Counted from the stretch's first letter, positions 1-58,084 are shown. The stretch is 64,000 nucleotides of DNA from a virus (IMGVR_UViG_3300044986_000731:1-64000), one strand, 5' to 3'. Program-made: numbers and translations. The notes: a model not told the origin generated them from the letters alone.

Positions 1-24
1 GAGTCTTGAGAGGAGACACATCCC

Positions 25-267
25 ATGACCGGCCCCTGCATCGTCACGACCTATCGAGGACCGACCGAGACCCGAGGCGCGAGGATCATCTCACGGTGCC
101 TCAACCTGCGATCGATGACCATCTCGTTCAACCACGAACTGTCGGCTACGGAGAATCACGCCCTCGCGGCGAGGGTGTTCGCGTCCCGGTACTGGGGCAG
201 CGAGGTGCGGCTGGCCTCGGGGGTACTGAGGATCGGCGTCGAGGCGCACATCGTCGTGCCGGCATAG
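25..267 (+). CDS. Small phage protein of unknown function with TRGARI motif
   Basis: Encodes 80 residues. The ATG is preceded by a clear ribosome site, GAGGAGA, about 9 bases upstream, which decides the frame against the longer overlapping reading frame that starts at base 6. The N-terminal third contains a T-R-G-A-R-I segment followed by a short basic stretch and, later, N-H-A-L-A-A-R. I recall similar short TRGARI proteins in many unrelated tailed phages, always without known function; that is memory, not a search. No signal peptide or membrane segment is visible. It is the last gene of a unit that continues to the left of the window, because a hairpin and a new promoter follow directly. 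Confidence 0.8.
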   Translation: MTGPCIVTTYRGPTETRGARIISRCLNLRSMTISFNHELSATENHALAARVFASRYWGSEVRLASGVLRIGVEAHIVVPA

Positions 268-295: not shown

Positions 296-324
296 TTGAC
301 ACGACGTCGCGGGTAGCCTAGATT
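296..324 (+). promoter_or_regulatory. Promoter P1 (TTGACA-17-TAGATT) with palindromic spacer
   Basis: Consensus -35 TTGACA, a 17-base spacer and -10 TAGATT. The spacer contains CGACGTCG, an 8-bp palindrome. The distance to the next ATG at 365 leaves a leader of about 35 bases with ribosome site AGGGAG. Promoters at 2802 and 6399 share the spacer core GACGTCGCG, which makes a common regulator likely (inference). Confidence 0.75.
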
Positions 325-364
325 TGTGTTAGTTCGAGACCATCAACCAAAGGGAGCCTGAGAC

Positions 365-850
365 ATGAGCAAGCCCACGAAGGTCGACGCCGACACTTGG
401 CAGTACGCCGGCTTCACGATCAACCGCTGCACCCATAGCCGCACGTTTCTCGCAACGCGGCCCGACGGCACGAAGACCTATGTCCGAGACCGGCTCCGCG
501 ACGTCGTGGTCGACATCGACTGCTGGCACTGGAAGCAGTGGGATGAGCGGGAGAGGGCGTCCTCAGCCGTCAATCCTGAGCCGGAGCCTGTACCCGCCCC
601 CGCCCCGACCCTCGCCGGCTTCCTGTCCGAGTGGGGCCTCGAACTCGTGTCTGATGCCAACGGCATCCAGCGGCACCGTCGCGACAATGTCGAGGTCTTC
701 ATCGACACCGTCTACGGCGGCGTCGAGATCGTCGTCTGGGAGCAGGACAGCGTCACCGAGAAGAGACGGCTCGTCCTGCCCGGCGGCAAGTGGCCCGTGC
801 ACGCTGCCGCCGAGGTTGTTCGCGCCGTGCTCCGCGAGCGGCATGCCTGA
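365..850 (+). CDS. Early protein of unknown function, 161 aa, two domains joined by a Pro-Glu linker
   Basis: First gene behind promoter P1; ribosome site AGGGAG before the ATG. Two short regions are joined by a proline-rich linker (PEPEPVPAPAP) at about residues 71-81. The N-terminal part is rich in Trp, Tyr and His and contains T-R-P-D-G-T-K; the C-terminal part is acidic and amphipathic. No catalytic motif, zinc site or membrane segment is evident. It heads a run of seven small genes up to 2791 that are probably co-transcribed. I do not recognise a family. Confidence 0.85.
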   Translation: MSKPTKVDADTWQYAGFTINRCTHSRTFLATRPDGTKTYVRDRLRDVVVDIDCWHWKQWDERERASSAVNPEPEPVPAPAPTLAGFLSEWGLELVSDANGIQRHRRDNVEVFIDTVYGGVEIVVWEQDSVTEKRRLVLPGGKWPVHAAAEVVRAVLRERHA

Positions 851-888
851 AGTCTGGATACATCACCCTCAAGAAAGAAAGGCAGAAG

Positions 889-1233
889 ATGACTGAGCAA
901 GAGTTCCTTCGGAATGCCAACGGACGCGCTCGACGGCGCCTGTTCGACGGCGGCGACTATCTCGCGTTTTGCGAGGCTCTCGACGAGGCGTCGGCGGCTG
1001 CCGCCCGTGGCGAGCCGTACTACTGGGAGACCAACGCCGGTGGCGTCGCCAACAGTTACGGCAGCGTCACCTCCTCGGCGAGGGCCGGCGTCTACACGAC
1101 GCCCGACGGCACCGTGATCACGGTCGTGGACCGCGCCACTGTCGGCGGTCGATCGGTCCCGTGCATCCGCCACGGCGGTGAGCGGGCCTACCACAAGTGG
1201 TTCAGAGAGAGCATCGCGCTCGCCAAGTCTTGA
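889..1233 (+). CDS. Small early protein of unknown function (114 aa)
   Basis: The ATG at 889 follows the purine-rich ribosome site AAGAAAGGCAG; the reading frame is open further upstream but that part lies over the preceding gene. The N-terminus is basic (N-G-R-A-R-R-R-L-F) and the remainder has a beta-rich look with a Y-T-T-P-D-G-T segment. No known motif. The junction with the previous gene carries AGTCTGGATAC right after the stop codon, a sequence that recurs at other junctions in the window. Confidence 0.8.
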   Translation: MTEQEFLRNANGRARRRLFDGGDYLAFCEALDEASAAAARGEPYYWETNAGGVANSYGSVTSSARAGVYTTPDGTVITVVDRATVGGRSVPCIRHGGERAYHKWFRESIALAKS

Positions 1234-1262
1234 AGTCTGGAAACCAGAAGGGAACCCCAACC

Positions 1263-1589
1263 ATGATCGCTGACGGCAAGTTTCACCGAGACGGCGACGG
1301 CGGATACGTCGCGTGCTTCAAGACGACGCTCGACGGCAAGCCTGCCGTCGTGACGTTCGTGACAGAGCAGGGCCTGCGGGGCAGTCGCAGGTACTGGTGG
1401 ACGACCGCCACGGTGGACGGCATCGCCGTGATCCACCGCGACGGTCACTACTGCGGCCTGCCATCAGTTGTCCGCAGTGGACCCACGAAGAGAACTGCTA
1501 CGGACGTCGCGTTTCTCGCCGAGCGAGGCTTCGAGCGGATCGCGCCGCCGGAGGGGTGGACCGGATGTTTCGCTCGACTTCAGTCCTGA
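1263..1589 (+). CDS. Small early protein of unknown function (108 aa)
   Basis: ATG preceded by AGAAGGGAACCCCAACC. The same leader (AGAAAGGAACCCCAACC) precedes the next gene, so the two intergenic stretches look duplicated. The sequence begins M-I-A-D-G-K-F-H-R-D-G-D-G-G-Y, a style seen in small beta-sheet phage proteins. Contains a W-W-T-T segment and single cysteines but no CxxC pair. Function unknown. Confidence 0.8.
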   Translation: MIADGKFHRDGDGGYVACFKTTLDGKPAVVTFVTEQGLRGSRRYWWTTATVDGIAVIHRDGHYCGLPSVVRSGPTKRTATDVAFLAERGFERIAPPEGWTGCFARLQS

Positions 1590-1608
1590 AAAGAAAGGAA
1601 CCCCAACC

Positions 1609-2010
1609 GTGAACACCTACGACCCACACGCCGCCCGCAGCCGACTGCCGACGTCTCTGACCGTCGGCTGTGACGGCAACCTGTATCGAGTGCCCGAGGG
1701 GCTTCGCGGAGACTGGCCGCTCGTCCGCTCGAACTACTGCCGCCACCACCGCGAGATCAGGACCGTCGCCGACCTCAAGGCCACGCTGCGAGCCGGCGAG
1801 TATGCGTGGCCGGGCGGCGGCGCCCTGTACTGCGTCACTGCCGACGGAGCCGTGCTCTCGTTCGCCGCCGTCCGGCAGGAATTCCGTCAGGTTGCGGAGG
1901 CCGTGCGAGACCGCGACACTCTGCGGGGTTGGTGCGTGATTGGGATCGAGAACGCGGCAGACGACGACGAGCCGACAGTGTGTGACCACACTGGCGTGGT
2001 GATCGAGTAA
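1609..2010 (+). CDS. Small early protein of unknown function (133 aa), GTG start
   Basis: GTG start chosen because it follows AAGAAAGGAACCCCAACC at the same distance as in the preceding gene; the frame is open upstream but overlaps that gene. The product is slightly acidic with cysteines at scattered positions and no paired zinc motif. It follows the preceding gene by 19 bases and is probably translated from the same message. No family recognised. Confidence 0.8.
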   Translation: MNTYDPHAARSRLPTSLTVGCDGNLYRVPEGLRGDWPLVRSNYCRHHREIRTVADLKATLRAGEYAWPGGGALYCVTADGAVLSFAAVRQEFRQVAEAVRDRDTLRGWCVIGIENAADDDEPTVCDHTGVVIE

Positions 2011-2028
2011 CGAGCAAGGAGACAACAC

Positions 2029-2226
2029 ATGATCATTCCAGTTCGGACATATCGGCTGCGTGGCGGGTATCGGCTCCTCGTGACCAAGACTCGCGACGTC
2101 TGGCAAGAGCGAGAGGGTCGTCACACGCTGCTCGCGACCGCGAGCGAGTGGTCGAGGCGGAACGGCGGCGACCTGAGACTCAGTCGCGGCAACGCATGCC
2201 GCGCTGCGAATTTCTGGGGCTTCTGA
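2029..2226 (+). CDS. Small basic protein of unknown function (65 aa)
   Basis: ATG preceded by the good ribosome site AAGGAGA. The product is strongly basic (many Arg) with the segment E-W-S-R-R-N-G-G-D-L near the middle, which could suit nucleic-acid binding, but no helix-turn-helix can be defined. It ends 12 bases before the next start, within the same early unit. Confidence 0.7.
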   Translation: MIIPVRTYRLRGGYRLLVTKTRDVWQEREGRHTLLATASEWSRRNGGDLRLSRGNACRAANFWGF

Positions 2227-2237
2227 GGAGACTACCC

Positions 2238-2498
2238 GTGGATACTGTCTTTACTCCCGAATCGCTGGAGCGGAGCGTGGCGAGAGGGGCCTTTGCGGTT
2301 GCCACGCTGGGTGATTTCCTGAAGATCGACGCCGACGAGGTGTTCGTCTTCCGATTTCCGGCCAGAGACTTGTGGAACCGCGAGAACGGTGACGGTGAGT
2401 TTCTTGAGGTTCTGGACGTGGCGATCGACCGATCGAGTGTCACGACCAGCCACGGAGACATCCCGACGACGTCGGAGACGACGATCTACTATCGATGA
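2238..2498 (+). CDS. Small acidic early protein (86 aa), GTG start
   Basis: GTG start behind GAGGAGACTACCC; the frame is open upstream but that part overlaps the preceding gene. Acidic product with D-A-D-E-V-F-V-F-R-F near residue 30 and several serine and threonine residues at the C-terminus. No cysteine or membrane segment. Unknown function; part of the early unit behind P1. Confidence 0.7.
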   Translation: MDTVFTPESLERSVARGAFAVATLGDFLKIDADEVFVFRFPARDLWNRENGDGEFLEVLDVAIDRSSVTTSHGDIPTTSETTIYYR

Positions 2499-2521
2499 CA
2501 ACCAAAACCAAAGGAGCGGCA

Positions 2522-2791
2522 ATGAAACTCAGACTCCAGTCCTACAAGCCCGAAGCCCGCGAGGGCACGTTGCCGATGAGCGTGCACGCACCGGGCTTGC
2601 TCCGCTGGGCCAAGGCCGGCTACGGCGCGAGCAAGGCCGGCGACCGCACGGTCGTCGCGATCATCGCCGAGTCGTTCGGCCTGCGTCGCGAGGTCGTGCT
2701 CGCGATCCTGACCGGCGAAGTCGACATGGTCGTCGAGGGCGACGACGTGGTCGTGGACTGGCCCGGGGATGACCCCCTGAAACCGGCCTGA
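2522..2791 (+). CDS. Small early protein of unknown function (89 aa)
   Basis: ATG preceded by AAAGGAGCGGCA. The region D-R-T-V-V-A-I-I-A-E-S-F-G-L-R-R-E-V-V-L could form two helices separated by a turn, but it does not match an HTH well enough to call. The C-terminus is acidic. Last gene of the first early unit: its stop is followed within a few bases by a small hairpin and promoter P2. Confidence 0.75.
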   Translation: MKLRLQSYKPEAREGTLPMSVHAPGLLRWAKAGYGASKAGDRTVVAIIAESFGLRREVVLAILTGEVDMVVEGDDVVVDWPGDDPLKPA

Positions 2792-2830
2792 AACAGGCCA
2801 CTGGACACAAGCCGCGACGTCGCGTATACT
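2785..2830 (+). promoter_or_regulatory. Promoter P2 (TGGACA-17-TATACT) with 12-bp palindromic operator and upstream hairpin
   Basis: A small hairpin, GGCCTG-AAA-CAGGCC (2785-2799), is followed directly by -35 TGGACA (2802-2807), a 17-base spacer and -10 TATACT (2825-2830). The last 12 spacer bases, CGCGACGTCGCG (2813-2824), are a perfect palindrome abutting the -10 box. Thirty bases (2799-2828) are repeated exactly at 6396-6425. A repressor or activator bound to the palindrome would directly block or reshape polymerase binding (inference). Confidence 0.8.
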
Positions 2831-2868
2831 CCTGTAGTCGAGATCACCCCAAACCAAAGAAACCTGAA

Positions 2869-3717
2869 ATGAGCCTCGCCAATTTCAACCCAGTCGCGAT
2901 CGACCACTCCTACCTCGACCGCCTCGCCGTGCGAGCGACCGCCGTGCGAGAGGTCGCGTACGCCGAGCATGCTGCCGTGTCCGCTGCCGGCTACACGGTG
3001 TACACGCTCAGGCCATACAGCCGGCGGGGCGAGACCGTTTACGTGCACCCGCAGAGCGGCCTGCCTCGCTACGGCAACAGGCTCGACTGGTCGGCCGTCG
3101 AGCCGCACGTCCTCACGATCGAGCGGGCACTCGCCGAGGGGCTGTGCAGCGAGGAGCACGTCGAGCGGCTCGACGCCGCGAAGGCCGCGCTCTCGCACGC
3201 GGTCGCTGCCTGCCGTGAGGTCGAGGACGAGTACCGCCGCCGGCCGTGGTCGCGGTACTGGCTCGTCACGTCCAGCGACGGGCACGTCCACCGGTCGACG
3301 TGCTGCTCGACGTGCAACAAGGGCAGGTCGGCGACTGGCTTCGCTCTGGTGCCGTACCTCAGCGGCTCGACCTCGGCCGACGCCGTGGCCGACCTCGGCC
3401 CTGCCCTGTGCAGCGTTTGCTTCCCCGAGGCCCCCGTCGAGTCTCGCGAGCAGTCGAGAGTCTCGGCAAGAGTTGCGCTCTCGCTCGCCGAGGAGGGCGT
3501 AGAGGCGTTTCAGCGAGCAAGGGCTGCTGCTGCTTCGCGACGCGCTGCACGGTGCCCCGGCACCGGCAAGCCCGGACTCGTACCGGTGGTCGCCGACGGC
3601 ACGCCGTCGCACACAGCCGCATACATCCGCAAGCGGACCGTGCAGTGTCCGCAGTGCAACGCGAGACTCGCGGCTCGCGGCCAGTCGAAGAACGTGCCGC
3701 CCCACAAACCCACTTGA
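2869..3717 (+). CDS. Cys-rich probable zinc-binding protein (282 aa)
   Basis: First gene behind P2. The N-terminal 110 residues are helical. Around residues 130-185 comes a patterned Cys/His region: W-S-R-Y-W-L-V-T-S-S-D-G-H-V-H-R-S, C-C-S-T-C, then L-S-G-S-T-S-A-D-A-V-A-D and C-S-V-C-F-P-E-A-P-V-E. I recall this pattern in actinobacteriophage and bacterial proteins (GHxHxSxxCSTC ... CxVCxPxAPVE), which look like zinc-binding modules of unknown function. The C-terminus has a second site, C-P-G-T-G-K-P-G ... C-P-Q-C-N, resembling a zinc ribbon. No enzyme motif. A regulatory or nucleic-acid-binding role is a guess. Confidence 0.85.
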   Translation: MSLANFNPVAIDHSYLDRLAVRATAVREVAYAEHAAVSAAGYTVYTLRPYSRRGETVYVHPQSGLPRYGNRLDWSAVEPHVLTIERALAEGLCSEEHVERLDAAKAALSHAVAACREVEDEYRRRPWSRYWLVTSSDGHVHRSTCCSTCNKGRSATGFALVPYLSGSTSADAVADLGPALCSVCFPEAPVESREQSRVSARVALSLAEEGVEAFQRARAAAASRRAARCPGTGKPGLVPVVADGTPSHTAAYIRKRTVQCPQCNARLAARGQSKNVPPHKPT

Positions 3718-3743
3718 CTCGATAACGGTTGATCGCGTCTATT
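3714..3743 (+). promoter_or_regulatory. Possible promoter overlapping the preceding stop codon (TTGACT-18-TCTATT)
   Basis: TTGACT (3714-3719) overlaps the TGA stop of the preceding gene; TCTATT (3738-3743) follows after 18 bases. The part next to the -10 reads GATCGCGTCTATT, faintly like the GTCGCGTATA of P2 and P3 but without the palindrome. It would serve the small zinc protein at 3767. Confidence 0.35.
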
Positions 3744-3766
3744 GTCTGCCCACCGGAACCCACACC

Positions 3767-3994
3767 ATGAAGACCTGCTCGATATGCCAGATGCCGATCG
3801 ACGTGATCGGCGGCGACTGGACCGACGGACACAACGCCGAGCCGGTGAACTCCGGCCGGTGCTGCTCGACCTGCAACGCCGTGGTCGTGATCCCGGCGAG
3901 GCTCAACCAGATGTACGGACACCGAAACGGCGCACCCTCGCCGCAGCGCGCTGCCAACCATCGGCCGCATGGGTCGCGCCGCCGGCGGACGTGA
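3767..3994 (+). CDS. Small zinc-finger-like protein with two CxxC pairs (75 aa)
   Basis: Starts M-K-T-C-S-I-C and has a second pair C-C-S-T-C-N after about 25 residues, followed by V-V-I-P-A-R-L. The layout CxxC - hydrophilic loop containing NAEPVNxGRCC - CxxCN - VIPARL is one I recall from short proteins of many phages and plasmids, presumed to bind one zinc ion. The Arg-rich tail after residue 55 may be non-conserved. The ATG lacks a strong ribosome site (ACCCACACC); the product may be made at low level. Confidence 0.8.
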   Translation: MKTCSICQMPIDVIGGDWTDGHNAEPVNSGRCCSTCNAVVVIPARLNQMYGHRNGAPSPQRAANHRPHGSRRRRT

Positions 3995-4091
3995 CATCAC
4001 CGGCAGTCGAGGCAGGGTTATTCCTTTGCCCTGTGACTCGACCGTCAGCGGCACGTCACGCCGCACCATACACCCAGAGGAGGATCGAGAG

Positions 4092-4844
4092 ATGTGGAGC
4101 GCTTTCTTCACCGTCAGTGCCGGCAAGGCTACCTATATGCTGTCTCCGATCGCGTTGGTCGGCGAGGGCATGGAGCGACACGCCGACGGGACCGTGTCTC
4201 GGAGGCTGTCCGTCGACCGCACGTTCAAACGTCGCGGTGAGGCTGTCGGATTTCTCGCCGAGAAGTGCGAGCGACTGTCGGCAGGCTGCGTGCTCGCCGC
4301 GAGGCAGGCCTCGGCGAGTGTCTATCTCGGCGGCGATGACGGGCAGCACGTCGTGCACGCCTACGTCGACGACCGCGATCTGACCTGCCAATGCCTGATT
4401 GACCGAGTCGCCACGTTCGCTGGGCCGACCGGTGAGTTGCTCGCGCGTCGCGAGAACGGCGTGGTCGACCGCGTCGGCCTGCGAACGGTCTACGGCTCGC
4501 GTCGTGAGGCTGCTGTCGCGGGGATTCGCCGCCTCACGGAGATACAGCAGACGGCTGTTGAGGCGGTCGAGTCTCTATCGCAACCACCATTCGGTCTCGG
4601 CAAGGTCGTCGGCACGCCGGGCGCGCTGCGAGCGGCATCTCAGGACGAGATCAGAGAGATGCTCCGTCGCCACGAGACTTGCGACTGGGGTGCGGTGTGC
4701 GACGAGGACTGGGACGAGAACGACCTCGCTGTCGAGTCCGGCGAGCGGCTCCTCTCGTCCTACGAATCGGACGGCGAGACGGTGTGGGTGATCACCGAGG
4801 CGGATCGAAGCGTGACCACGGTCCTTCTTCCCGAGGAGTACTGA
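4092..4844 (+). CDS. Plasmid/phage-type protein with a C-terminal WVITEADRS-TTVLLPEEY domain (250 aa)
   Basis: The ATG at 4092 follows GAGGAGGATCGAGAG; an in-frame start at 3969 would overlap the preceding gene and lacks a site. Residues 1-180 are of unknown type. The last 65 residues (from about R-E-M-L-R-R-H-E) run D-W-G-A-V-C-D-E-D, N-D-L-A-V-E-S-G-E-R-L-L-S-S-Y, then W-V-I-T-E-A-D-R-S and T-V-L-L-P-E-E-Y. I recall this C-terminal domain as a free-standing protein of about 100 residues on bacterial plasmids and prophages, often given unreliable restriction-related names. Here it is fused to an extra N-terminal region. Function unknown. Confidence 0.85.
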   Translation: MWSAFFTVSAGKATYMLSPIALVGEGMERHADGTVSRRLSVDRTFKRRGEAVGFLAEKCERLSAGCVLAARQASASVYLGGDDGQHVVHAYVDDRDLTCQCLIDRVATFAGPTGELLARRENGVVDRVGLRTVYGSRREAAVAGIRRLTEIQQTAVEAVESLSQPPFGLGKVVGTPGALRAASQDEIREMLRRHETCDWGAVCDEDWDENDLAVESGERLLSSYESDGETVWVITEADRSVTTVLLPEEY

Positions 4845-4845
4845 G

Positions 4846-5034
4846 ATGCTGGCATGGAGGTCAACCGTGACGTCGCTGCGGCAAGTCGCCGACTCGCTCC
4901 AGCGGTCGCTCGATGAGGCAAACGCCGAGAGGCGGCGGCTCGAAGCGACCAACGCAAAACTGATGACGTTGCTCCGCGCGATGCGGGACGTCAATGCAGA
5001 CCTCGACGAGAAACTTCTAAGGAGCGAGCGATGA
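4846..5034 (+). CDS. Short coiled-coil protein (62 aa)
   Basis: Begins one base after the preceding stop codon and ends by overlapping the next start by four bases, so it is translationally coupled on both sides. Almost the whole product has a heptad-like helical pattern (L-R-Q-V-A-D-S-L-Q-R-S-L-D-E-A-N), typical of a small coiled coil. No hydrophobic membrane segment. Function unknown. Confidence 0.7.
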   Translation: MLAWRSTVTSLRQVADSLQRSLDEANAERRRLEATNAKLMTLLRAMRDVNADLDEKLLRSER

Positions 5035-5474
5035 GCACCGAGAGGATCACAGTCGACGGAGAGTCTCACGTCATCGAGGCTCGCCAAGTGAACCTGATCT
5101 TCAACACCTCTCCATCGGAGGTGCACTACGAGGGTCGCGAGGTCTTCGATCCAGAGGCGTCTCTCGCGAGGTATCGAGCACTCACTGAGATCGATCCGCT
5201 CGTGGCGTCGCTGTGGCGAATCGTCATCTGCGACTTCGCAGGCGAGGTCACCAAGGAGTCGCTCGACCAGTGCCAGACGCCGTATCAGCAGGTGATCGGC
5301 CTGATCATGCTCACGGTCGAGGCGATCATAGCCAAGACTCGGTTCGTGTGGCGGCGACCCGAGTCGGGTCTCCATCCACGGCATCAGGTTGGACTCGCGG
5401 ACCTGATGCTCCTGTTCTCAGACCGCGAGCGGTTGATCGAGTTTGTCGCGTCACAGCACGGAGGTCAAAAATGA
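5031..5474 (+). CDS. Phage protein of unknown function (147 aa)
   Basis: ATG overlaps the preceding stop (ATGA) and is preceded by AAGGAGCG. Acidic N-terminus, a helical middle with D-P-L-V-A-S-L-W-R-I-V, and a C-terminal segment H-P-R-H-Q-V-G-L-A-D-L-M-L-L-F. No recognised motif. Coupled to the next gene by overlapping start and stop. Confidence 0.75.
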   Translation: MSTERITVDGESHVIEARQVNLIFNTSPSEVHYEGREVFDPEASLARYRALTEIDPLVASLWRIVICDFAGEVTKESLDQCQTPYQQVIGLIMLTVEAIIAKTRFVWRRPESGLHPRHQVGLADLMLLFSDRERLIEFVASQHGGQK

Positions 5475-6052
5475 GAGTCTTGATCCAGCGCGTCTACGAG
5501 TTTTGCCCGGAGACGAATCCGGAGATCGCGAAGGCAGTCGAGGTGTTTCGAGCGAACGGGTTTGAGGTGTTCGAGTCTGGTCGGCCGGAGAAGAAGCCTG
5601 AGCCTGAGCCTGAGCCTGAGCCGTCGGTGGACGAGCACGCATCTCGCCGTGCCTTGGTCACGCAGGCCGTAGCCAGCATGAGGTCTCGCGGTGGCCTTTC
5701 GAGCGCCGCTGCCTGCCGGCTCTTCGCCATCGACCAGACTCGGCTGGCGAAGTGGTCGCGGGGGCTTGGCCGTGTCGACGACACGACCCTCGCGAGGGTC
5801 AAGGCGGTCGAGGAGCGGCTCGCCGGCAAGTCGGCAGGCGAGATCGTGACGGTGGTCGAGGCCGTCTCGGCGCAGCAGGGAATCAGGGGTCGTCGGCAGA
5901 AACTGACCGAGACCGAGCGGGCCGAGGTCGCGCAGTTGCTTCGCGACGGGGTTCCTCCGAGGGAGATTGCCGCGACCTATCGCATGTCTCTGGGGTCGGT
6001 CGACAACTACCGTCGACGCGACGTTGGCAATGCCACGACGACGGAGGTATGA
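5471..6052 (+). CDS. HTH DNA-binding protein with Pro-Glu linker (193 aa)
   Basis: The ATG at 5471 overlaps the preceding stop codon. Residues 1-42 form a small N-terminal domain, followed by the linker KPEPEPEPEPS (DNA repeat of CTGAGC near 5600). The middle (about 55-110) could hold one helix-turn-helix. The C-terminal 55 residues contain a better one: L-T-E-T-E-R-A-E-V-A-Q-L-L-R-D-G then P-R-E-I-A-A-T-Y and S-L-G-S-V-D-N-Y, as in resolvase-type or antirepressor-like HTH proteins. It is therefore a candidate for the regulator that reads the palindromic promoters on either side (inference from position only). Confidence 0.8.
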   Translation: MRVLIQRVYEFCPETNPEIAKAVEVFRANGFEVFESGRPEKKPEPEPEPEPSVDEHASRRALVTQAVASMRSRGGLSSAAACRLFAIDQTRLAKWSRGLGRVDDTTLARVKAVEERLAGKSAGEIVTVVEAVSAQQGIRGRRQKLTETERAEVAQLLRDGVPPREIAATYRMSLGSVDNYRRRDVGNATTTEV

Positions 6053-6085
6053 TCGAGGTGTCCACTCGTCCCTCGGAGACAGATC

Positions 6086-6367
6086 ATGGCTCGCAAGCGC
6101 AAGCCCGCCGTCGCGGAGTCGGCGGATCATATCCCGAGCGGCGTCGAGGCAATCAGCACCCGTACAGCAGCCGAGATGCTGGGCTGCTGTACGGGGCACG
6201 TTCGGAAGTTAGTCGGTCGCGGTCGCCTCGGCGAGCGTGGCAGAGACTGGTTCCGCGTGTCGCCTCGATCGCTGCTCCTGTCTCTCAAGGCCGTGCAGCG
6301 GTACGCGAGGGATATCGAAGAGTCTCCGTACGGACGGCCTCGACTCGGGTTCTCGACCGACCGCTGA
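6086..6367 (+). CDS. Small HTH (excisionase/MerR-like) DNA-binding protein (93 aa)
   Basis: The ATG follows CGGAGACAGATC. Residues 23-70 match a winged-helix HTH of the excisionase or HTH_17 type: I-S-T-R-T-A-A-E-M-L-G-C-C-T-G-H-V-R-K-L then R-G-R-L-G and W-F-R-V-S-P-R-S-L. The N-terminus is a short basic tail. It lies just upstream of promoter P3 and could act there, or could direct recombination, but no integrase is present in this window. Confidence 0.85.
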   Translation: MARKRKPAVAESADHIPSGVEAISTRTAAEMLGCCTGHVRKLVGRGRLGERGRDWFRVSPRSLLLSLKAVQRYARDIEESPYGRPRLGFSTDR

Positions 6368-6398
6368 TTTCGCTGGTTTTGCGGCTCTTTTGTGGCAC

Positions 6399-6427
6399 TG
6401 GACACAAGCCGCGACGTCGCGTATAGT
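6399..6427 (+). promoter_or_regulatory. Promoter P3 (TGGACA-17-TATAGT), near-copy of P2
   Basis: -35 TGGACA (6399-6404), 17-base spacer containing CGCGACGTCGCG (6410-6421), -10 TATAGT (6422-6427). Bases 6396-6425 are identical to 2799-2828. It drives the cluster beginning at 6473. The upstream stretch, GGTTTTGCGGCTCTTTT, might act as a weak terminator for the previous unit. Confidence 0.8.
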
Positions 6428-6472: not shown

Positions 6473-7087
6473 ATGGTCACGAGCACATACGAGCGTTCGC
6501 GAGAGGCGACCCTTCCGATCCGCCGTGGGATCACGGTGGTCTTTCCTGTTGGCTGGACCGACCCGCAGTGCGCGGCGTGGGTACTCGATCAGGGCCTGCC
6601 ACAGCCACAGCCACAGCCACAGCCACAGCCACAGCCACAGCCACAGCCGGGCGACGTCTGGTCGCAGAACGTCGCCGCGTGCCCCTCGCTGGCGAAGGTC
6701 GAGTCGTCACCTCGCGTGCCGGCATTTGTCCGCGACATCGCGGGCAAGGCGAAGCGTTACCTGCTCTCCGAGCGGCAGCGAGCAGCGGTGACCAGTGCAG
6801 TCGAGCAGGCGGAGTCGCCGAAGAAGCCGATCGAGACTGGTCGCCGGCTCGTCGAGGGCAAGGTCGTGAAACTCAAATGGGAGACGCGAAACTCTGGATA
6901 CGGGTACGGCGCGAGGACGACTCAATCGCTCAAGGCGCTCGTCCAGTGCGACGGTTATCGCCTGTACGGAACCGTGCCGTCGGCGATCGTGAACTCGATC
7001 AGCGTCGGCGACACGCTCCGGGTCGAGGCGGAGGTCGTCGAGAAGGAGCCGGGGTTCGGATTCTTCTCGCGGCCGAGGGTGAAGTGA
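6473..7087 (+). CDS. Protein with (PQ)n linker and a C-terminal OB-fold-like domain (204 aa)
   Basis: First gene behind P3; site AAGGGAG. Residues 1-42 are a small N-terminal region, then comes a pure Pro-Gln repeat. From residue 122 to the end there is a domain G-R-R-L-V-E-G-K-V-V-K-L-K, L-K-A-L-V-Q-C-D-G-Y-R-L-Y-G-T-V-P-S, V-G-D-T-L-R-V-E-A-E-V and F-G-F-F-S-R-P. I recall that GxVxSxK ... GTVP ... GDxVxFxAxV ... FGFFKRP layout from plasmid and phage proteins and read it as an OB-fold beta barrel that may bind nucleic acid. No catalytic residues. Confidence 0.8.
   Translation: MVTSTYERSREATLPIRRGITVVFPVGWTDPQCAAWVLDQGLPQPQPQPQPQPQPQPQPGDVWSQNVAACPSLAKVESSPRVPAFVRDIAGKAKRYLLSERQRAAVTSAVEQAESPKKPIETGRRLVEGKVVKLKWETRNSGYGYGARTTQSLKALVQCDGYRLYGTVPSAIVNSISVGDTLRVEAEVVEKEPGFGFFSRPRVK
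6601..6648 (+). repeat. (ACAGCC)8 hexanucleotide repeat coding for Pro-Gln
   Basis: Eight perfect copies of ACAGCC in frame within the gene at 6473, giving a Pro-Gln linker. Because the unit is six bases, copy-number change by slippage would alter linker length without a frameshift. Confidence 0.95.
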
Positions 7088-8506: not shown

Positions 8507-8657
8507 CGCCTACAAGCGCGCAGGTCTCGGCATCATGGCGAGACGGTGCTACGCCAGCGCGGCGAGGTGCTGGTCGGCGGTCGGCGAGCAGAATCTGCAC
8601 GAGACAGCGCACGCATGGGAGACGGCGATCCCCGTCTACTGGGAGGACGACCTGTGA
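8367..8657 (+). CDS. Small helical protein (96 aa) overlapping the previous gene
   Basis: ATG preceded by GGGGAAAAAGAGAG, inside the end of the preceding gene (140-base overlap, other frame). The product is helical, rich in Ala and Arg, with repeated aromatic positions (Y-T-T-A-A-D-A-Y-K-R-A-G, R-R-C-Y-A-S-A-A-R-C-W) suggestive of a TPR-like helical pair. Its end overlaps the helicase start by four bases (GTGA). Function unknown. Confidence 0.7.
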   Translation: MRNRAKLLARGDAVLLEASELETSPPENLSSTASLRRAARRYTTAADAYKRAGLGIMARRCYASAARCWSAVGEQNLHETAHAWETAIPVYWEDDL

Positions 8658-10030
8658 TCAAGCCGTTTCGTCACCAACTCGAAGAGGCCGACATGATCCG
8701 CCGCAGGCCAGCATGCCTGATCGCTGCGGACATGGGCACAGGCAAGAGTTACGCCACGCTGCTCGGCTTGCGAGAGCAGCGGTGCATCCTGATCGCGTGC
8801 CCAATCGCAGTCGGTGCGGCGTGGGTCAAGCAAATCGAGATGTTCGACGCAGACCGCACGGCCGTGCTGCTCGTGGACGGCACGACGGCAAGCCGAGCGG
8901 CGAGGCTCGCGAAGGTCGCCGGTGACCGGCCACTCGCCGTGATCGTGAACTACGACGCCGTGTCTCGCGCGGGGTCGGCGCTCGGGAAGGCGGTCGCGGC
9001 TCGCAAGTGGGATGCGATCGTGCTCGACGAGTCTCACCGCGTCAAAAGTCACACTGGAAAGGCGAGCAAGTATTTCTTCTCGCTCGCAAAGGCGAATCCG
9101 GGTGCGAAGCGAATATGCCTGAGCGGCACGCCGACGCCGCACAGCCCGCTGGACTGGTGGTCGCAGTTTCGCTTTCTCGACCCGGCCATCCTCGGCGAAA
9201 ACTTCACGGCTTTCCGTAACCGAGTGGCGATCATGCACCCGTGGGTGAAGGGCTGGGTCACCGGATTCCGGCCAGACGCACTCGCGGCTATGGCGACTCG
9301 CATTGATCCGCTGATCTATCGCGTCCGTGCCGATGACGTGCTCGACTTGCCGGATCAGATACACACGCAGGTTCCTGTGACGCTGCCGCCGAAGAGCCTC
9401 GCGTTCTATCGCGCGATAGAAGACGAGATGATCGCAATCGTCGAGACGGGCGAGGTGGTGTCGGCGCAGAATGCACTCGTGGTCGTGACGAGACTCCAGC
9501 AGGCGACGTCGGGGTTCGCGGTGTCAGAGCAGGGCGACGTCGTGCCCGTGTGTGAGACAAATGCGAAAGCGGCGGCTGTGCGAGACCTGATTGAAGACCT
9601 CGACGAGCCTGTGGTGGTCTTTGCAAAGTTCGTTCACGACCTCGACTGCATCGCAGCCGCTTGCAAGTCTTGCAATCGCAAGAGTCTGGAACTCAGCGGA
9701 CGAAAAAAGGAGTTAGCCGAGTGGCAGTCGGCGACAGGCAATGAGGTGATCGTCGTTCAGCAGCAGGCAGGCGGATGCGGAATCGATTTGACCCGATCGA
9801 GCGCCGGCATATACTTCTCGCTCTCGCACTCGCTCGGCGACTACTCGCAGTCGCTCGCTCGCCTGCGAAGGCCCGGTCAGACACGGACGGTCAGGTACTG
9901 GCACCTCGTCGCATCAGAGACGGTCGACGAGGCGATCTACGCCGCCATCGAGCGGAAAGCCGACATCACGGAAGCGGTCATCTCGCGGCTCACACGGAGG
10001 GTTACTGGCAATGCTCGTCGCCACAAATAG
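8654..10030 (+). CDS. SNF2-type DEAD/DEAH-box helicase/translocase (458 aa)
   Basis: ATP-dependent DNA translocase of superfamily 2. The GTG start overlaps the preceding stop; the frame is open upstream but over another gene. Motif I A-A-D-M-G-T-G-K-S (24-32), motif II D-E-S-H (125-128), motif III S-G-T-P-T-P (157-162), and motif VI S-L-A-R-L-R-R-P-G-Q (400-409) are all present, with the C-terminal RecA lobe beginning near V-V-F-A-K-F. The order and the arginine-rich R-L-R-R-P-G-Q motif are typical of SNF2-like phage helicases. It is compact, with no extra domain. It precedes the exonuclease and overlaps it by 20 bases, consistent with a role in replication or recombination. Confidence 0.93.
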   Translation: MIKPFRHQLEEADMIRRRPACLIAADMGTGKSYATLLGLREQRCILIACPIAVGAAWVKQIEMFDADRTAVLLVDGTTASRAARLAKVAGDRPLAVIVNYDAVSRAGSALGKAVAARKWDAIVLDESHRVKSHTGKASKYFFSLAKANPGAKRICLSGTPTPHSPLDWWSQFRFLDPAILGENFTAFRNRVAIMHPWVKGWVTGFRPDALAAMATRIDPLIYRVRADDVLDLPDQIHTQVPVTLPPKSLAFYRAIEDEMIAIVETGEVVSAQNALVVVTRLQQATSGFAVSEQGDVVPVCETNAKAAAVRDLIEDLDEPVVVFAKFVHDLDCIAAACKSCNRKSLELSGRKKELAEWQSATGNEVIVVQQQAGGCGIDLTRSSAGIYFSLSHSLGDYSQSLARLRRPGQTRTVRYWHLVASETVDEAIYAAIERKADITEAVISRLTRRVTGNARRHK

Positions 10031-10853
10031 TCTGGAAACGGTACTCACCACGGACGACATGACGAACGAGGCGTATCACGCCGAGCGAGATCACATCTCG
10101 CGTTCGACGGCGTTTCGCTTCGCTGGGCCGCACGGCGCCGTCGCTCAGAAGTTCCACGACGCCGGCGGCGTGATCTTCTCGGGCAACTCGTCCACGGACT
10201 TCGGCTCGGCAGTCGATCGAGCGGTCGGCGCCCTAATGTCTGGAATCGATTACCGCAGCCTCGTCACGGTGTGCCCGCCGGAGTGCCTGACGAGCAACGG
10301 CCAGCGCAGGGGGAAGGCGTACGAGCAGTGGAAGCAAAGCATCTCGGCTGATGCCATCGAGGTCAGTGCGAGTGACGCGACGAAGGTCGACGCGATGATC
10401 GCGTCTCTTCTGGAGCATGACCAAGCGAGATCGCTCATCGAGACCTGCGAAAGTTCGCAGCGGTCGGTGTTCTGGATCGACGACGACGGCCACAAGAGAA
10501 AGGCTCGCGCCGACGGCGTGTCGAAGTCGGGACAGTGGTGGGACTTGAAAACGACTTCTTCCGAGTGGGACGTGATCCGCCACTCGTTCCGCCGGTTCGG
10601 CTACCACTGGCAGGCGGCGTGGTACTCGGACGCGAGAGACGCCGCTGCCGGCGGGCCTCTCGGGTTCGCGTTCCCTTTCGTCGTGATCCAGACGTTCGCG
10701 CCGTTCTGCGTCTCCGTGATCGAGATCACGGAGGACAGCCTCGCGAGAGCACGCGAAGAGATTCGTGAGACGCTCTCGCTCATCAAGACTCGCCGGGAGA
10801 CCGGCGTGTATCTGCCCGCCTCGTATCACGAGACCGTGCGGATCGACGTGTGA
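10011..10853 (+). CDS. PD-(D/E)XK exonuclease, RecE/exonuclease VIII-like (280 aa)
   Basis: Probable 5'-3' dsDNA exonuclease for recombination. Opening signature Y-H-A-E-R-D-H-I-S-R-S-T near residues 22-33 is typical of the RecE-like (DUF3799) family. The metal-binding core is visible as A-D168-G ... D178-L-K180, with Q201 in Y-H-W-Q-A-A-W-Y as the downstream Q motif. Start overlaps the helicase gene by 20 bases. The next gene looks like an ssDNA-binding protein, so the pair may act like phage exonuclease/annealing systems, although no canonical annealase (Beta, RecT, Erf) is seen. Confidence 0.88.
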   Translation: MLVATNSLETVLTTDDMTNEAYHAERDHISRSTAFRFAGPHGAVAQKFHDAGGVIFSGNSSTDFGSAVDRAVGALMSGIDYRSLVTVCPPECLTSNGQRRGKAYEQWKQSISADAIEVSASDATKVDAMIASLLEHDQARSLIETCESSQRSVFWIDDDGHKRKARADGVSKSGQWWDLKTTSSEWDVIRHSFRRFGYHWQAAWYSDARDAAAGGPLGFAFPFVVIQTFAPFCVSVIEITEDSLARAREEIRETLSLIKTRRETGVYLPASYHETVRIDV

Positions 10854-55694: not shown

Positions 55695-58084
55695 TGCCGA
55701 GTCTTTCGACACAGGCCCGTATCGCGAGCCTGACGGCGTTTGCCGAGGCCCGAGCAGGCGACTGCGGGCGGGACAGCGGGCGGTTCGCGAAGGGGAATAA
55801 CTGCCAGTCATCGGCTGCTTCGCCGCCACGGCCGAAGACTCTTGAGCAGGAGCGGATCGACGCTGCGAGAGACGAGGGCGAGGAGCCTGAGCAGGCCACG
55901 AAGGCTGACGTCACTGAAGACGTGAAGACGTACATCCGACTGTCCGGCTACGGCTGGGCTGAGTTCGTGCGCAAGTCTCAGTCGCACAGCCCCGACACGA
56001 TTCGCAATGCGAGGCACGCGAAGAACAAGGCCGTGCAAATCTACCGCGAAGAGGGCGCCGCCGGTTTCGGGCGATACCTCGAAGAGATCGGCCTGCGAAG
56101 TCTAAGCCCGACCGAGGCTCGCCGCATCAGGCCGATCAGGCAACGCCCGTCCCTGCCGGGACAGATGCGGCTGCCTCTCTCCGGTGACAACTGCGAGCGA
56201 AATCCGGGGGGCACGTTCGCGAAGGGCAATACGTGCCAAGAAGGCGCCGGCCTGTCGCGAGATGAGCAGGAGAATACTGGGAGGCTTTACGACAGACTGT
56301 CCTCGACTGAAGAGCCATTTATTACGCTGGGGCCGAGCGAGGCTGCCAAGACTCCGGGGTTTGAAAAAGCCCATCAGGTGAGCGTAAGTAGCCCGAACGA
56401 CGTATCGCGGATACTTCGCGAGAACAGCGTAAACACAAAGCAACTCGCCGCGCTTGGTGTCGCCACTGAGCCGGGCGCGAAAGTTACAGTGTCGGGATAC
56501 GGAAACAGGCTTGTCGTTAGGTCAAATATCCCGGTCCCTATTTCAGCCGAAGAACTAGTCGCAGCCGGGGCTGTCAGCCCCGGACAATCCGCGCAGGAAA
56601 AGGCAGCAGAAGTAATCGCAGATACAGGCGCCCACATCAGCATTGACATGACGCTTGGTGGCGTCGACAGCCAAATTCATTACGGACTCTTTCAGGTCAG
56701 CCACAGTATTCAAAACGCTATCGCCATGCACGCATCTGTTCAGGAGTCGCCAGACGGCCCTTGGACTGACGAGCAAAAGGCTCTTGCGGAACTGGGAAAT
56801 AAAGCCAACCGTTTTTTCGGCGGCGCAATCATAGACCTCATGGGCCAGTCTCTTTTTGAGGCTGAAAAAGCGGGAATTCATACGGCCGAGACAAGCGCCG
56901 TTGGTCGTGGACGAGGGGGCGGTCAAGGAGCAGGTCGGGCCGACTCATTTACTTTCAAAGGGTACTCGCTGTGGCCGAGGTTCGGGTTCGACGGCGAGAT
57001 TCCTTCTTCTACTCAGATTCAGATCGACCCGATTCTGCGGGAAATTTTCGCGGAGGGGCCTGACTCTCCGAGGCGTCGCGTTCTCACTGAGGATGGCTGG
57101 GAAAAATGGCAGAGCGGCTCGATGCGTATTCAAGACCTCGTCGAGACTCCGCAGGGCGAACGGATGTGGCGAGACTACGGATCGTCAGCCCACATGTCTA
57201 TCGACTTTCGCGACAAGGAGTCGAAGGGATACAAGAAATTCACAGAGGCAAAGGAAACGGCTTCTCGCGCGAAGCGGCGGCGAGAAAGACGCGACTTGTC
57301 TCAGTGGCTCTGGGACACTGACTTCCGCTTCGATCCCGAGATTTTCTTCGTCGAACGACGAATGACTCGGTTTCTCGAATCGCGAAACTGCGGCACCGGA
57401 GCCGGCGGCTTCCAGAAGGGCAACACCTGCGGAGGCGTCGCTGCCGACGTCGCCGCATCGGCAGCCGAGGGTGCAGTCACAGGCGCTGCCGTGGCTGCCG
57501 GCAAGACGGCGTTCTTCCCGCCGACCGTTGCGACGGGAGCCGCCGTCGGCGCTGCATACGGCGTGATCGGTGGTCTCTACGACGCAGCGATGTCCCCTAC
57601 GCGGGCTGGCAAAGCCATCGCGGCTGTCGGCAGCACGGACGAGAAGGTCGCGACTCTCGTGAAAGGCCTCGGAGGCTCACCGAAGTCTGTGGCGAAGTCG
57701 AAAGACGGCAAGAGGCTGACGCTCGATATCAAGGGCAGCAAGGGCGAGTCAAAGTTCCGGGTCGAGATCGAGAAGGACTCGATCACCATCACGCCGTCGA
57801 AAGAAAAACTGAGCGACGACGAGGTCGAGACGATCAAGCAGGTGGCGGCTGATCACTCCGGCAGAGAGGTGAGGGTCATCGTCGACAAGGTGCCTGTCTC
57901 GACCATGAGCAAACTGGCGAAGGCCGGGTTCCGAATCGGCGTGACGGTGACTGGCGCAATGGCCGCAGGCCTGCTGGTCCCCATGATTCCGTCGGTGGCC
58001 GGCACCGCAATCGAGAAGGTGGGCGGTCTCGACATCGAGAAGTCCGGAGTGCTGAAGCCGATCGACAAGGTGTTCGGTCTGTAA
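55694..58084 (+). CDS. Cysteine-box virion protein with paralogous domain D and membrane-like segments (796 aa)
   Basis: ATG shares its A with the preceding stop. Box at 24-37, a small helical domain (50-160), box 167-181, the fourth copy of the paralogous domain (185-555; G-Y-S-L-W-P-R-F-G-F-D-G at 423), and box 566-579. After that comes a Gly/Ala-rich hydrophobic region (585-630, V-T-G-A-A-V-A-A-G ... G-A-A-Y-G-V-I-G-G-L-Y), a charged beta domain, and a final hydrophobic helix (G-V-T-V-T-G-A-M-A-A-G-L-L-V-P-M-I). The C-terminal part could enter or cross the host membrane during DNA ejection, as inner-capsid or pilot proteins do (inference). Confidence 0.85.
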   Translation: MPSLSTQARIASLTAFAEARAGDCGRDSGRFAKGNNCQSSAASPPRPKTLEQERIDAARDEGEEPEQATKADVTEDVKTYIRLSGYGWAEFVRKSQSHSPDTIRNARHAKNKAVQIYREEGAAGFGRYLEEIGLRSLSPTEARRIRPIRQRPSLPGQMRLPLSGDNCERNPGGTFAKGNTCQEGAGLSRDEQENTGRLYDRLSSTEEPFITLGPSEAAKTPGFEKAHQVSVSSPNDVSRILRENSVNTKQLAALGVATEPGAKVTVSGYGNRLVVRSNIPVPISAEELVAAGAVSPGQSAQEKAAEVIADTGAHISIDMTLGGVDSQIHYGLFQVSHSIQNAIAMHASVQESPDGPWTDEQKALAELGNKANRFFGGAIIDLMGQSLFEAEKAGIHTAETSAVGRGRGGGQGAGRADSFTFKGYSLWPRFGFDGEIPSSTQIQIDPILREIFAEGPDSPRRRVLTEDGWEKWQSGSMRIQDLVETPQGERMWRDYGSSAHMSIDFRDKESKGYKKFTEAKETASRAKRRRERRDLSQWLWDTDFRFDPEIFFVERRMTRFLESRNCGTGAGGFQKGNTCGGVAADVAASAAEGAVTGAAVAAGKTAFFPPTVATGAAVGAAYGVIGGLYDAAMSPTRAGKAIAAVGSTDEKVATLVKGLGGSPKSVAKSKDGKRLTLDIKGSKGESKFRVEIEKDSITITPSKEKLSDDEVETIKQVAADHSGREVRVIVDKVPVSTMSKLAKAGFRIGVTVTGAMAAGLLVPMIPSVAGTAIEKVGGLDIEKSGVLKPIDKVFGL

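What the first reader, a model, noticed from the sequence alone, without database searches (positions are those of the whole stretch)
296..6427. Three co-regulated early promoters with a palindrome in the spacer
P1 (296), P2 (2802) and P3 (6399) share -35 T[TG]GACA, exact 17-base spacing and the core GACGTCGCG; P2 and P3 are identical over 30 bases. The 12-bp palindrome CGCGACGTCGCG between the boxes is where a regulator would compete with polymerase. Candidate regulators are the HTH proteins at 5471 and 6086, encoded between P2 and P3.
Basis: partly seen in the sequence, partly recalled or inferred. Interest (0 to 1): 0.6.

Follow-up and report, generated by a model that had tools for sequence, protein, structure and literature searches.

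The report
Phage early promoters with embedded operator
This uncultured, probably temperate phage carries six near-identical bacterial-type promoters that each hide the same short DNA palindrome, and its relatives keep the layout with their own palindrome beside the same small DNA-binding gene, which looks like an undescribed master repressor with its operators.

Summary
The record (90,351 b, ends overlapping by 176 b) holds six such promoters, not three: 84236, 86516, 88677, 296, 2802 and 6399, all on + within about 12.3 kb. All six sigma70-like N17 promoters scoring 10/12 or more carry GACGTCGCG in the spacer (200 shuffles: none). The palindrome sits in two registers, against the -35 or against the -10.

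Fourteen related phage records show the same architecture with other spacer motifs (CACCG-N4-CGGTG, ACCGACGTCGGT, GGCCTACGTAGGCC and others), in up to 13 promoters per phage. The dyad exceeds letter shuffles in five of six groups. A ~90-aa HTH_17/excisionase-like protein (window 6086-6367) occurs in 13 of those 14. It is followed at 32-65 b by an operator promoter, whatever gene comes next, and often preceded by a degenerate copy. The 5471 protein has homologues in only two.

Best reading: the 6086 protein is an autoregulated repressor that binds the spacer and blocks RNA polymerase across an early regulon. Most near-complete relatives encode an integrase and none searched has an S24/CI-type repressor, so it may be the lysogeny repressor. 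Binding, repression and early timing are inferred, not shown.

The parts
296..324 (+). P1: TTGACA-N17-TAGATT; palindrome copy CACGACGTCGCG (300-311) abuts the -35. Sister copies in the same register lie outside the window at record 86516 and 88677
2802..2830 (+). P2: TGGACA-N17-TATACT; perfect palindrome CGCGACGTCGCG (2813-2824) abuts the -10. Sister copy in the same register outside the window at record 84236
6399..6427 (+). P3: TGGACA-N17-TATAGT; perfect palindrome CGCGACGTCGCG (6410-6421) abuts the -10; starts 32 b after the stop codon of the 6086 gene
6086..6367 (+). 93-aa HTH_17/excisionase-like winged-helix protein, proposed repressor of the set
   Evidence: homologues in 13 relatives, always followed by an operator promoter; fold; family
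6024..6053 (+). TTGGCA-N18-TATGAT upstream of the 6086 gene with a degenerate operator (CCACGACGACGGAG) in the spacer: possible autoregulatory promoter
   Evidence: like-placed degenerate copies in G011, G020, G040, G042, G045, G047
5471..6052 (+).
   Evidence: homologues only in G023 and G029; Pfam HTH_23
365..850 (+). first gene behind P1, function unknown
2869..3717 (+). first gene behind P2, PHROG 2433 (unknown function)
6473..7087 (+). first gene behind P3, unknown function; SNF2-type helicase and PDDEXK-like genes follow at 8654-10853

Best explanation
The six promoters form one regulon of a probably temperate dsDNA phage. Host sigma70-type RNA polymerase reads them on entry (inferred). 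The palindrome in each spacer is the operator of a phage-encoded repressor, by gene linkage and conservation the 93-aa winged-helix HTH_17 protein at 6086-6367. Bound as a symmetric pair over the -35/-10 spacer, it keeps RNA polymerase off all six promoters at once. It probably limits its own expression through a degenerate operator upstream of its gene (6024), and its gene sits directly before a full operator promoter (6399). Protein and operator diverge between phage groups, as expected of an immunity or early shut-off repressor. Shown by computation: the promoter set, the dyads, the two registers, recurrence in relatives with changed operators, the gene linkage, the integrase, and no S24/CI-type repressor in seven records searched. 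Inferred: binding, dimerisation, repression, autoregulation, early timing, a role in lysogeny.
For: Six of six N17 promoters carry the motif, none in shuffles. Same architecture with other dyads in 14 related records; dyads exceed letter shuffles in 5 of 6 groups. 6086 homologues in 13 of them; an operator promoter follows the HTH stop within 32-65 b in 13 of 14 records including this one by strict scoring, and in the fourteenth (G023) a weaker-scoring one; product of per-group background rates 1.5e-6. The gene behind that promoter differs between groups, so the promoter goes with the HTH gene. More distant records without the HTH (G043, G044, G048) show no such promoter set. Spacers are 16-17 b, optimal for sigma70, and the palindrome shifts 7 bp between registers, which fits steric block better than activation. 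Integrase in 8 of 10 records; no Peptidase_S24 in 7.
Against: No binding or expression data. Linkage may partly reflect common descent rather than function, and the per-group rates are not strictly independent. In the G031/G035/G036/G037 group the dyad is weak (81 of 2000 shuffles reach it). HTH_17 proteins often bind direct repeats (BldC, Xis; own knowledge), not dyads. G046 has palindromic promoters but a tandem HTH_17 gene instead of this family (43, 54, 76). The 6086 gene lies inside the early region, not beside the integrase.
Confidence: 0.66

Rival explanations
1. The operators are real but the regulator is another phage protein: the 158-aa HTH_17 protein beside the integrase (record 80904-81380), the 5471 protein, or one without a recognised domain.
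For: The 80904 protein is conserved in G003, G008, G011 and G020 at 47-78%, and lies near the integrase in opposite orientation, a usual place for a phage regulator. The 5471 protein lies between P2 and P3.
Against: The promoter after the 80904 gene is conserved but has no palindrome; its sequence is kept better than the 6086 protein while operators change. The 5471 protein is absent from 11 of 13 relatives carrying the 6086 family, as far as their early regions are held.
Confidence: 0.15
2. A host transcription factor binds the palindrome and the phages have copied its site to borrow host control.
For: The centre ACGT recurs in several groups, as it would if hosts shared a factor; no host is known, so it cannot be excluded.
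Against: Operator sequence changes from phage group to phage group while tied to a phage HTH gene. The exact G000 operator promoters occur in no other viral contig.
Confidence: 0.1
3. The protein is a MerR-like activator that works from the spacer.
For: HTH_17 and MerR proteins share the winged-helix fold, and MerR dyads lie between -35 and -10 (mechanism from own knowledge).
Against: MerR promoters have over-long 19-20 b spacers; here they are 16-17 b with good boxes. Two registers 7 bp apart break any fixed geometry.
Confidence: 0.05
4. The copies are only recent duplications of one promoter cassette; the palindrome has no function of its own.
For: 296 and 88677 share most of about 70 b around the promoter; P2 and P3 share 30 b. 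Some copies carry an upstream stem-loop (75), recalling the mobile regulatory cassettes of T4-type phages (Arbiol et al. 2010, known to me and cited in PMC4177764).
Against: The palindrome is kept while register, boxes and flanks change, and is replaced by other dyads in relatives. Upstream stem-loops are not general.
Confidence: 0.04

Closest known systems
SPbeta master repressor MrpR and the SPBRE repeated element (PMC10516654)
   Same: One phage repressor with a short repeated element in many phage promoter regions; first recognised in silico as a repeated element.
   Different: MrpR is a tyrosine-recombinase-derived protein with a 15-bp motif; here a ~90-aa HTH_17 protein with a dyad inside the -35/-10 spacer.
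Cluster A mycobacteriophage repressor and operators/stoperators (PMC6550527, PMC9283540)
   Same: Many sites per genome in one orientation; repressor and site specificity differ between relatives.
   Different: Those sites are asymmetric and mostly outside promoters, stopping elongation; here the sites are dyads inside promoters, and the protein class differs.
Excisionase-family regulators (TIGR01764, PHROG 66; Pukovnik Xis 4j2n, RdfS 8dgl)
   Same: Closest protein family by profile and fold; phage excisionases that also act on transcription are known (own knowledge).
   Different: Scores below family cut-offs; the gene is far from the integrase (about 16 kb across the record ends) and tied to promoters.
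MerR-family spacer-binding activators
   Same: Winged-helix protein and a dyad between -35 and -10.
   Different: Spacer 16-17 b, not 19-20 b; no effector domain.

Membership tests
Multi-operator phage repressor regulon (works like SPBRE/stoperator systems) | same short element in several promoters of one phage | tested here: met
   six copies in the record; up to 13 in relatives
Multi-operator phage repressor regulon (works like SPBRE/stoperator systems) | phage protein shown to bind the element and repress | not testable with these tools
   needs gel shift and reporters
Cluster A stoperator system | asymmetric sites, most outside promoters | tested here: not met
   sites are dyads and only counted where promoters lie
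MerR-type spacer activation | 19-20 b spacer between the boxes | tested here: not met
   spacers 16-17 b
CI/LexA-type repressor | Peptidase_S24 and/or HTH_3 domain | tested here: not met
   no S24 in 7 records, no HTH_3 above cut-off; one sub-cut-off hit in G029 in its 5471 homologue
Pfam HTH_17 (PF12728) | score above the gathering cut-off | tested here: not met
   best hit for the 6086 family but 17.6-25.3 bits against 27
Excisionase family TIGR01764 | score above the curated cut-off | tested here: not met
   11 of 12 members match at E<=0.01; the window protein has 18.1 bits against 28.8; cut-off not seen for the others
Winged-helix (MerR/Xis-like) fold | HTH plus beta-hairpin wing | tested here: inconclusive
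   predicted at mean pLDDT 76.7; neighbours are Xis, RdfS, BldC, MerR-type, all at E>0.1
Temperate phage | site-specific integrase | tested here: met
   PF00589 at record 79648-80523 minus, 8 of 10 records

The most novel reading that the evidence does not exclude
A previously undescribed class of phage master repressor: ~90-aa excisionase-like winged-helix proteins in a widespread uncultured temperate phage lineage, each paired with its own operator dyad embedded in the spacer of up to about 13 early promoters, a natural series of diverged repressor/operator specificities.
Probability: 0.5. Interest if true: 0.65.

Novelty: new variant of a known kind. Interest (0 to 1): 0.55.

Why it matters
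It gives an anonymous metagenomic phage group a readable regulatory logic: a named candidate repressor, its operators, and a natural series of diverged repressor/operator pairs that can be tested with reporters. An excisionase-like protein as the master repressor in phages without a CI-type repressor would widen the known repertoire and make immunity specificity in uncultured phages testable from sequence.

Tried and rejected
Palindrome alone as enriched: at up to 2 mismatches it is not; only its combination with promoters is. Exact G000 operator promoters in other viral contigs: none. Host or prophage in genome contigs: helicase none, TerL only a 26% match in Marinilabilia. DUF7192 protein as bait: none. 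HTH alignment as bait: only G023; the helicase alignment worked. A general upstream stem-loop cassette: only part of the sites. Phage RNA polymerase PF00940: no hit, but the control was silent too, so uninformative. Direct-repeat reading of the G031/G035-type sites (e.g. ACTCC-TGGC-ATCCC): seen by eye, not tested. Homologue of the 6086 family in named phages: none, searched with the G011 member.

Full report
1. Observation. The three promoters are exactly as described. Reading on in the same record shows three more: 84236 (TTGACACTAGCCGCGACGTCGCGTATTCT), 86516 (TTGACGCGACGTCGCGGCTACGCTAGAAT) and 88677 (TTGACACGACGTCGCGGGTAGCGTAGATT). The record's ends overlap by 176 b with 2 mismatches, so the six lie in one stretch of about 12.3 kb, all reading the same way. 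Each precedes one or more small genes; P3 lies ahead of a stretch with an SNF2-type helicase and a DUF3799 PDDEXK-like protein. In 200 dinucleotide shuffles of the record, promoters of this quality appear 0.065 times on average and never with the motif; the record has 6 of 6. The palindrome by itself is not unusual for this GC-rich DNA.

2. Anatomy. In three promoters (296, 86516, 88677) the palindrome abuts the -35; in the other three it abuts the -10. The centres are 7 bp apart, so the palindrome is conserved as a unit of its own. A 7-bp shift turns the site to another face of the helix, which argues against an activator touching polymerase in a fixed geometry and for a simple block (inference). 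The sequence lies upstream of the expected start site, so it is not an RNA structure.

3. Relatives. The terminase large subunit and helicase searches led to a group of uncultured phages. Where the early region is held, the arrangement recurs with different spacer motifs. G011, G020, G040, G045 and G047 have CACCG-N4-CGGTG, and G042 a close variant; G029 and G023 have ACCGACGTCGGT or a close variant; G039 has GGCCTACGTAGGCC and degenerate variants; G046 has TTCCGATATCGGTA; G031, G035, G036 and G037 have a weakly symmetric motif such as CTCCGGACGTCTGC. G011 and G020 carry about 12 and 13 such promoters, including weak copies. Spacer dyads exceed letter-shuffled spacers in five of six groups. 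Sites within one phage are related by descent, so these figures are descriptive. The more distant G043, G044 and G048 show no such set.

4. The regulator. A profile of the 6086 protein finds one strong homologue of about 82-99 aa in 13 relatives (G011, G020, G023, G029, G031, G035, G036, G037, G039, G040, G042, G045, G047) and not in G043, G044, G048 or, beyond a weak hit to a tandem HTH_17 gene, G046. G011 has a second, weaker copy at 56229. In 13 of 14 records, this one included, an operator promoter begins 32-65 b after the HTH stop codon by strict scoring, and in G023 a weaker-scoring one does. The gene behind that promoter differs between groups: an AAA ATPase in G020/G040, other genes in G011, G031, G035, G039 and G042/G047, and a 6473-type gene in G000 and G023/G029. 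In G000, G011, G020, G040, G042, G045 and G047 a degenerate operator promoter also precedes the HTH gene, which suggests autoregulation. The 5471 protein has homologues in G023 and G029 only. The 80904 protein near the integrase is conserved, but the promoter that follows it has no such operator. The predicted fold is a winged helix (mean pLDDT 76.7), with Xis, RdfS, BldC and MerR-type proteins as fold neighbours at weak E-values and excisionase families as sequence neighbours below cut-off.

5. Lifestyle. A tyrosine recombinase lies on the opposite strand upstream of the early region in G000, and one is found in 8 of 10 records searched. There is no Peptidase_S24, and no HTH_3 above cut-off, in seven records. 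This makes a lysogeny role plausible; an early shut-off role is equally open. No host was found.

6. Comparison. In function it resembles the SPbeta MrpR/SPBRE regulon (PMC10516654) and the cluster A mycobacteriophage repressor/stoperator system, where repressor and site specificities differ between relatives (PMC6550527). It is a member of neither: protein class and site form differ. MerR-type activation is disfavoured by 16-17 b spacers. The helix of the HTH varies with the operator group (GH/SH with CG-N4-CG or close variants; RQ or SN with other inner pairs), a correlation from six groups only.

7. Verdict. Real and more extensive than reported: a phage regulon with spacer operators, most likely controlled by the 6086 protein. 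Binding and repression remain to be shown.

Noticed in passing
851, 1234, 7093, 24030 in the window; record 81828, 85604, 89729; G011 67821, G020 77723: The 8-mer AGTCTGGA occurs 14 times on + and never on - in G000, often right after stop codons; relatives have AGTCTGGATACNATAACC or GTCTGGATAAT. Possibly a second promoter class.
   Followed up: partly
record 81377 (G000); G003 83-, G008 4107-, L172 10229-, L173 11436, L167 1116-: A conserved promoter without palindrome, TTGACC-N16-TACAAT or TACACT, lies at the end of the 80904-type HTH gene in several relatives.
   Followed up: no
upstream of operator promoters in G011, G020, G031, G035, G036, G039: The element TGTCATAG recurs 5-25 b before the -35 of many operator promoters; it is not seen in G000.
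   Followed up: no
325-365 in the window; leaders after record 86516 and 88677: Leaders share GTTCGAGNNCAYYAACCAAAGG; some leaders in relatives end in a similar ACCACNAACCA.
   Followed up: no
window 1-176 versus record 90176-90351: The record's ends overlap by 176 b with 2 mismatches, so the linear record is probably a circle or a permuted genome cut in the early region.
   Followed up: partly
L103 1190-1720 (G046): A relative with the palindromic promoter set TTCCGATATCGGTA has a 135-aa tandem HTH_17 gene instead of the ~90-aa one, also just ahead of an operator promoter.
   Followed up: partly
record 82127-84010 and 87855-88304: GDP-mannose dehydratase-type gene with a neighbouring epimerase-like gene, and a pyrimidine dimer DNA glycosylase, beside or inside the early region.
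   Followed up: no
record 85671-87429: Two tandem DUF7192 genes, 33% identical, the second behind the operator promoter at 86516.
   Followed up: no
6599-6650 and 5596-5622: In-frame repeats: (CAGCCA)n coding PQPQPQ in the 6473 protein and (GAGCCT)n coding EPEPEP in the 5471 protein, the latter also in the G023 homologue.
   Followed up: no
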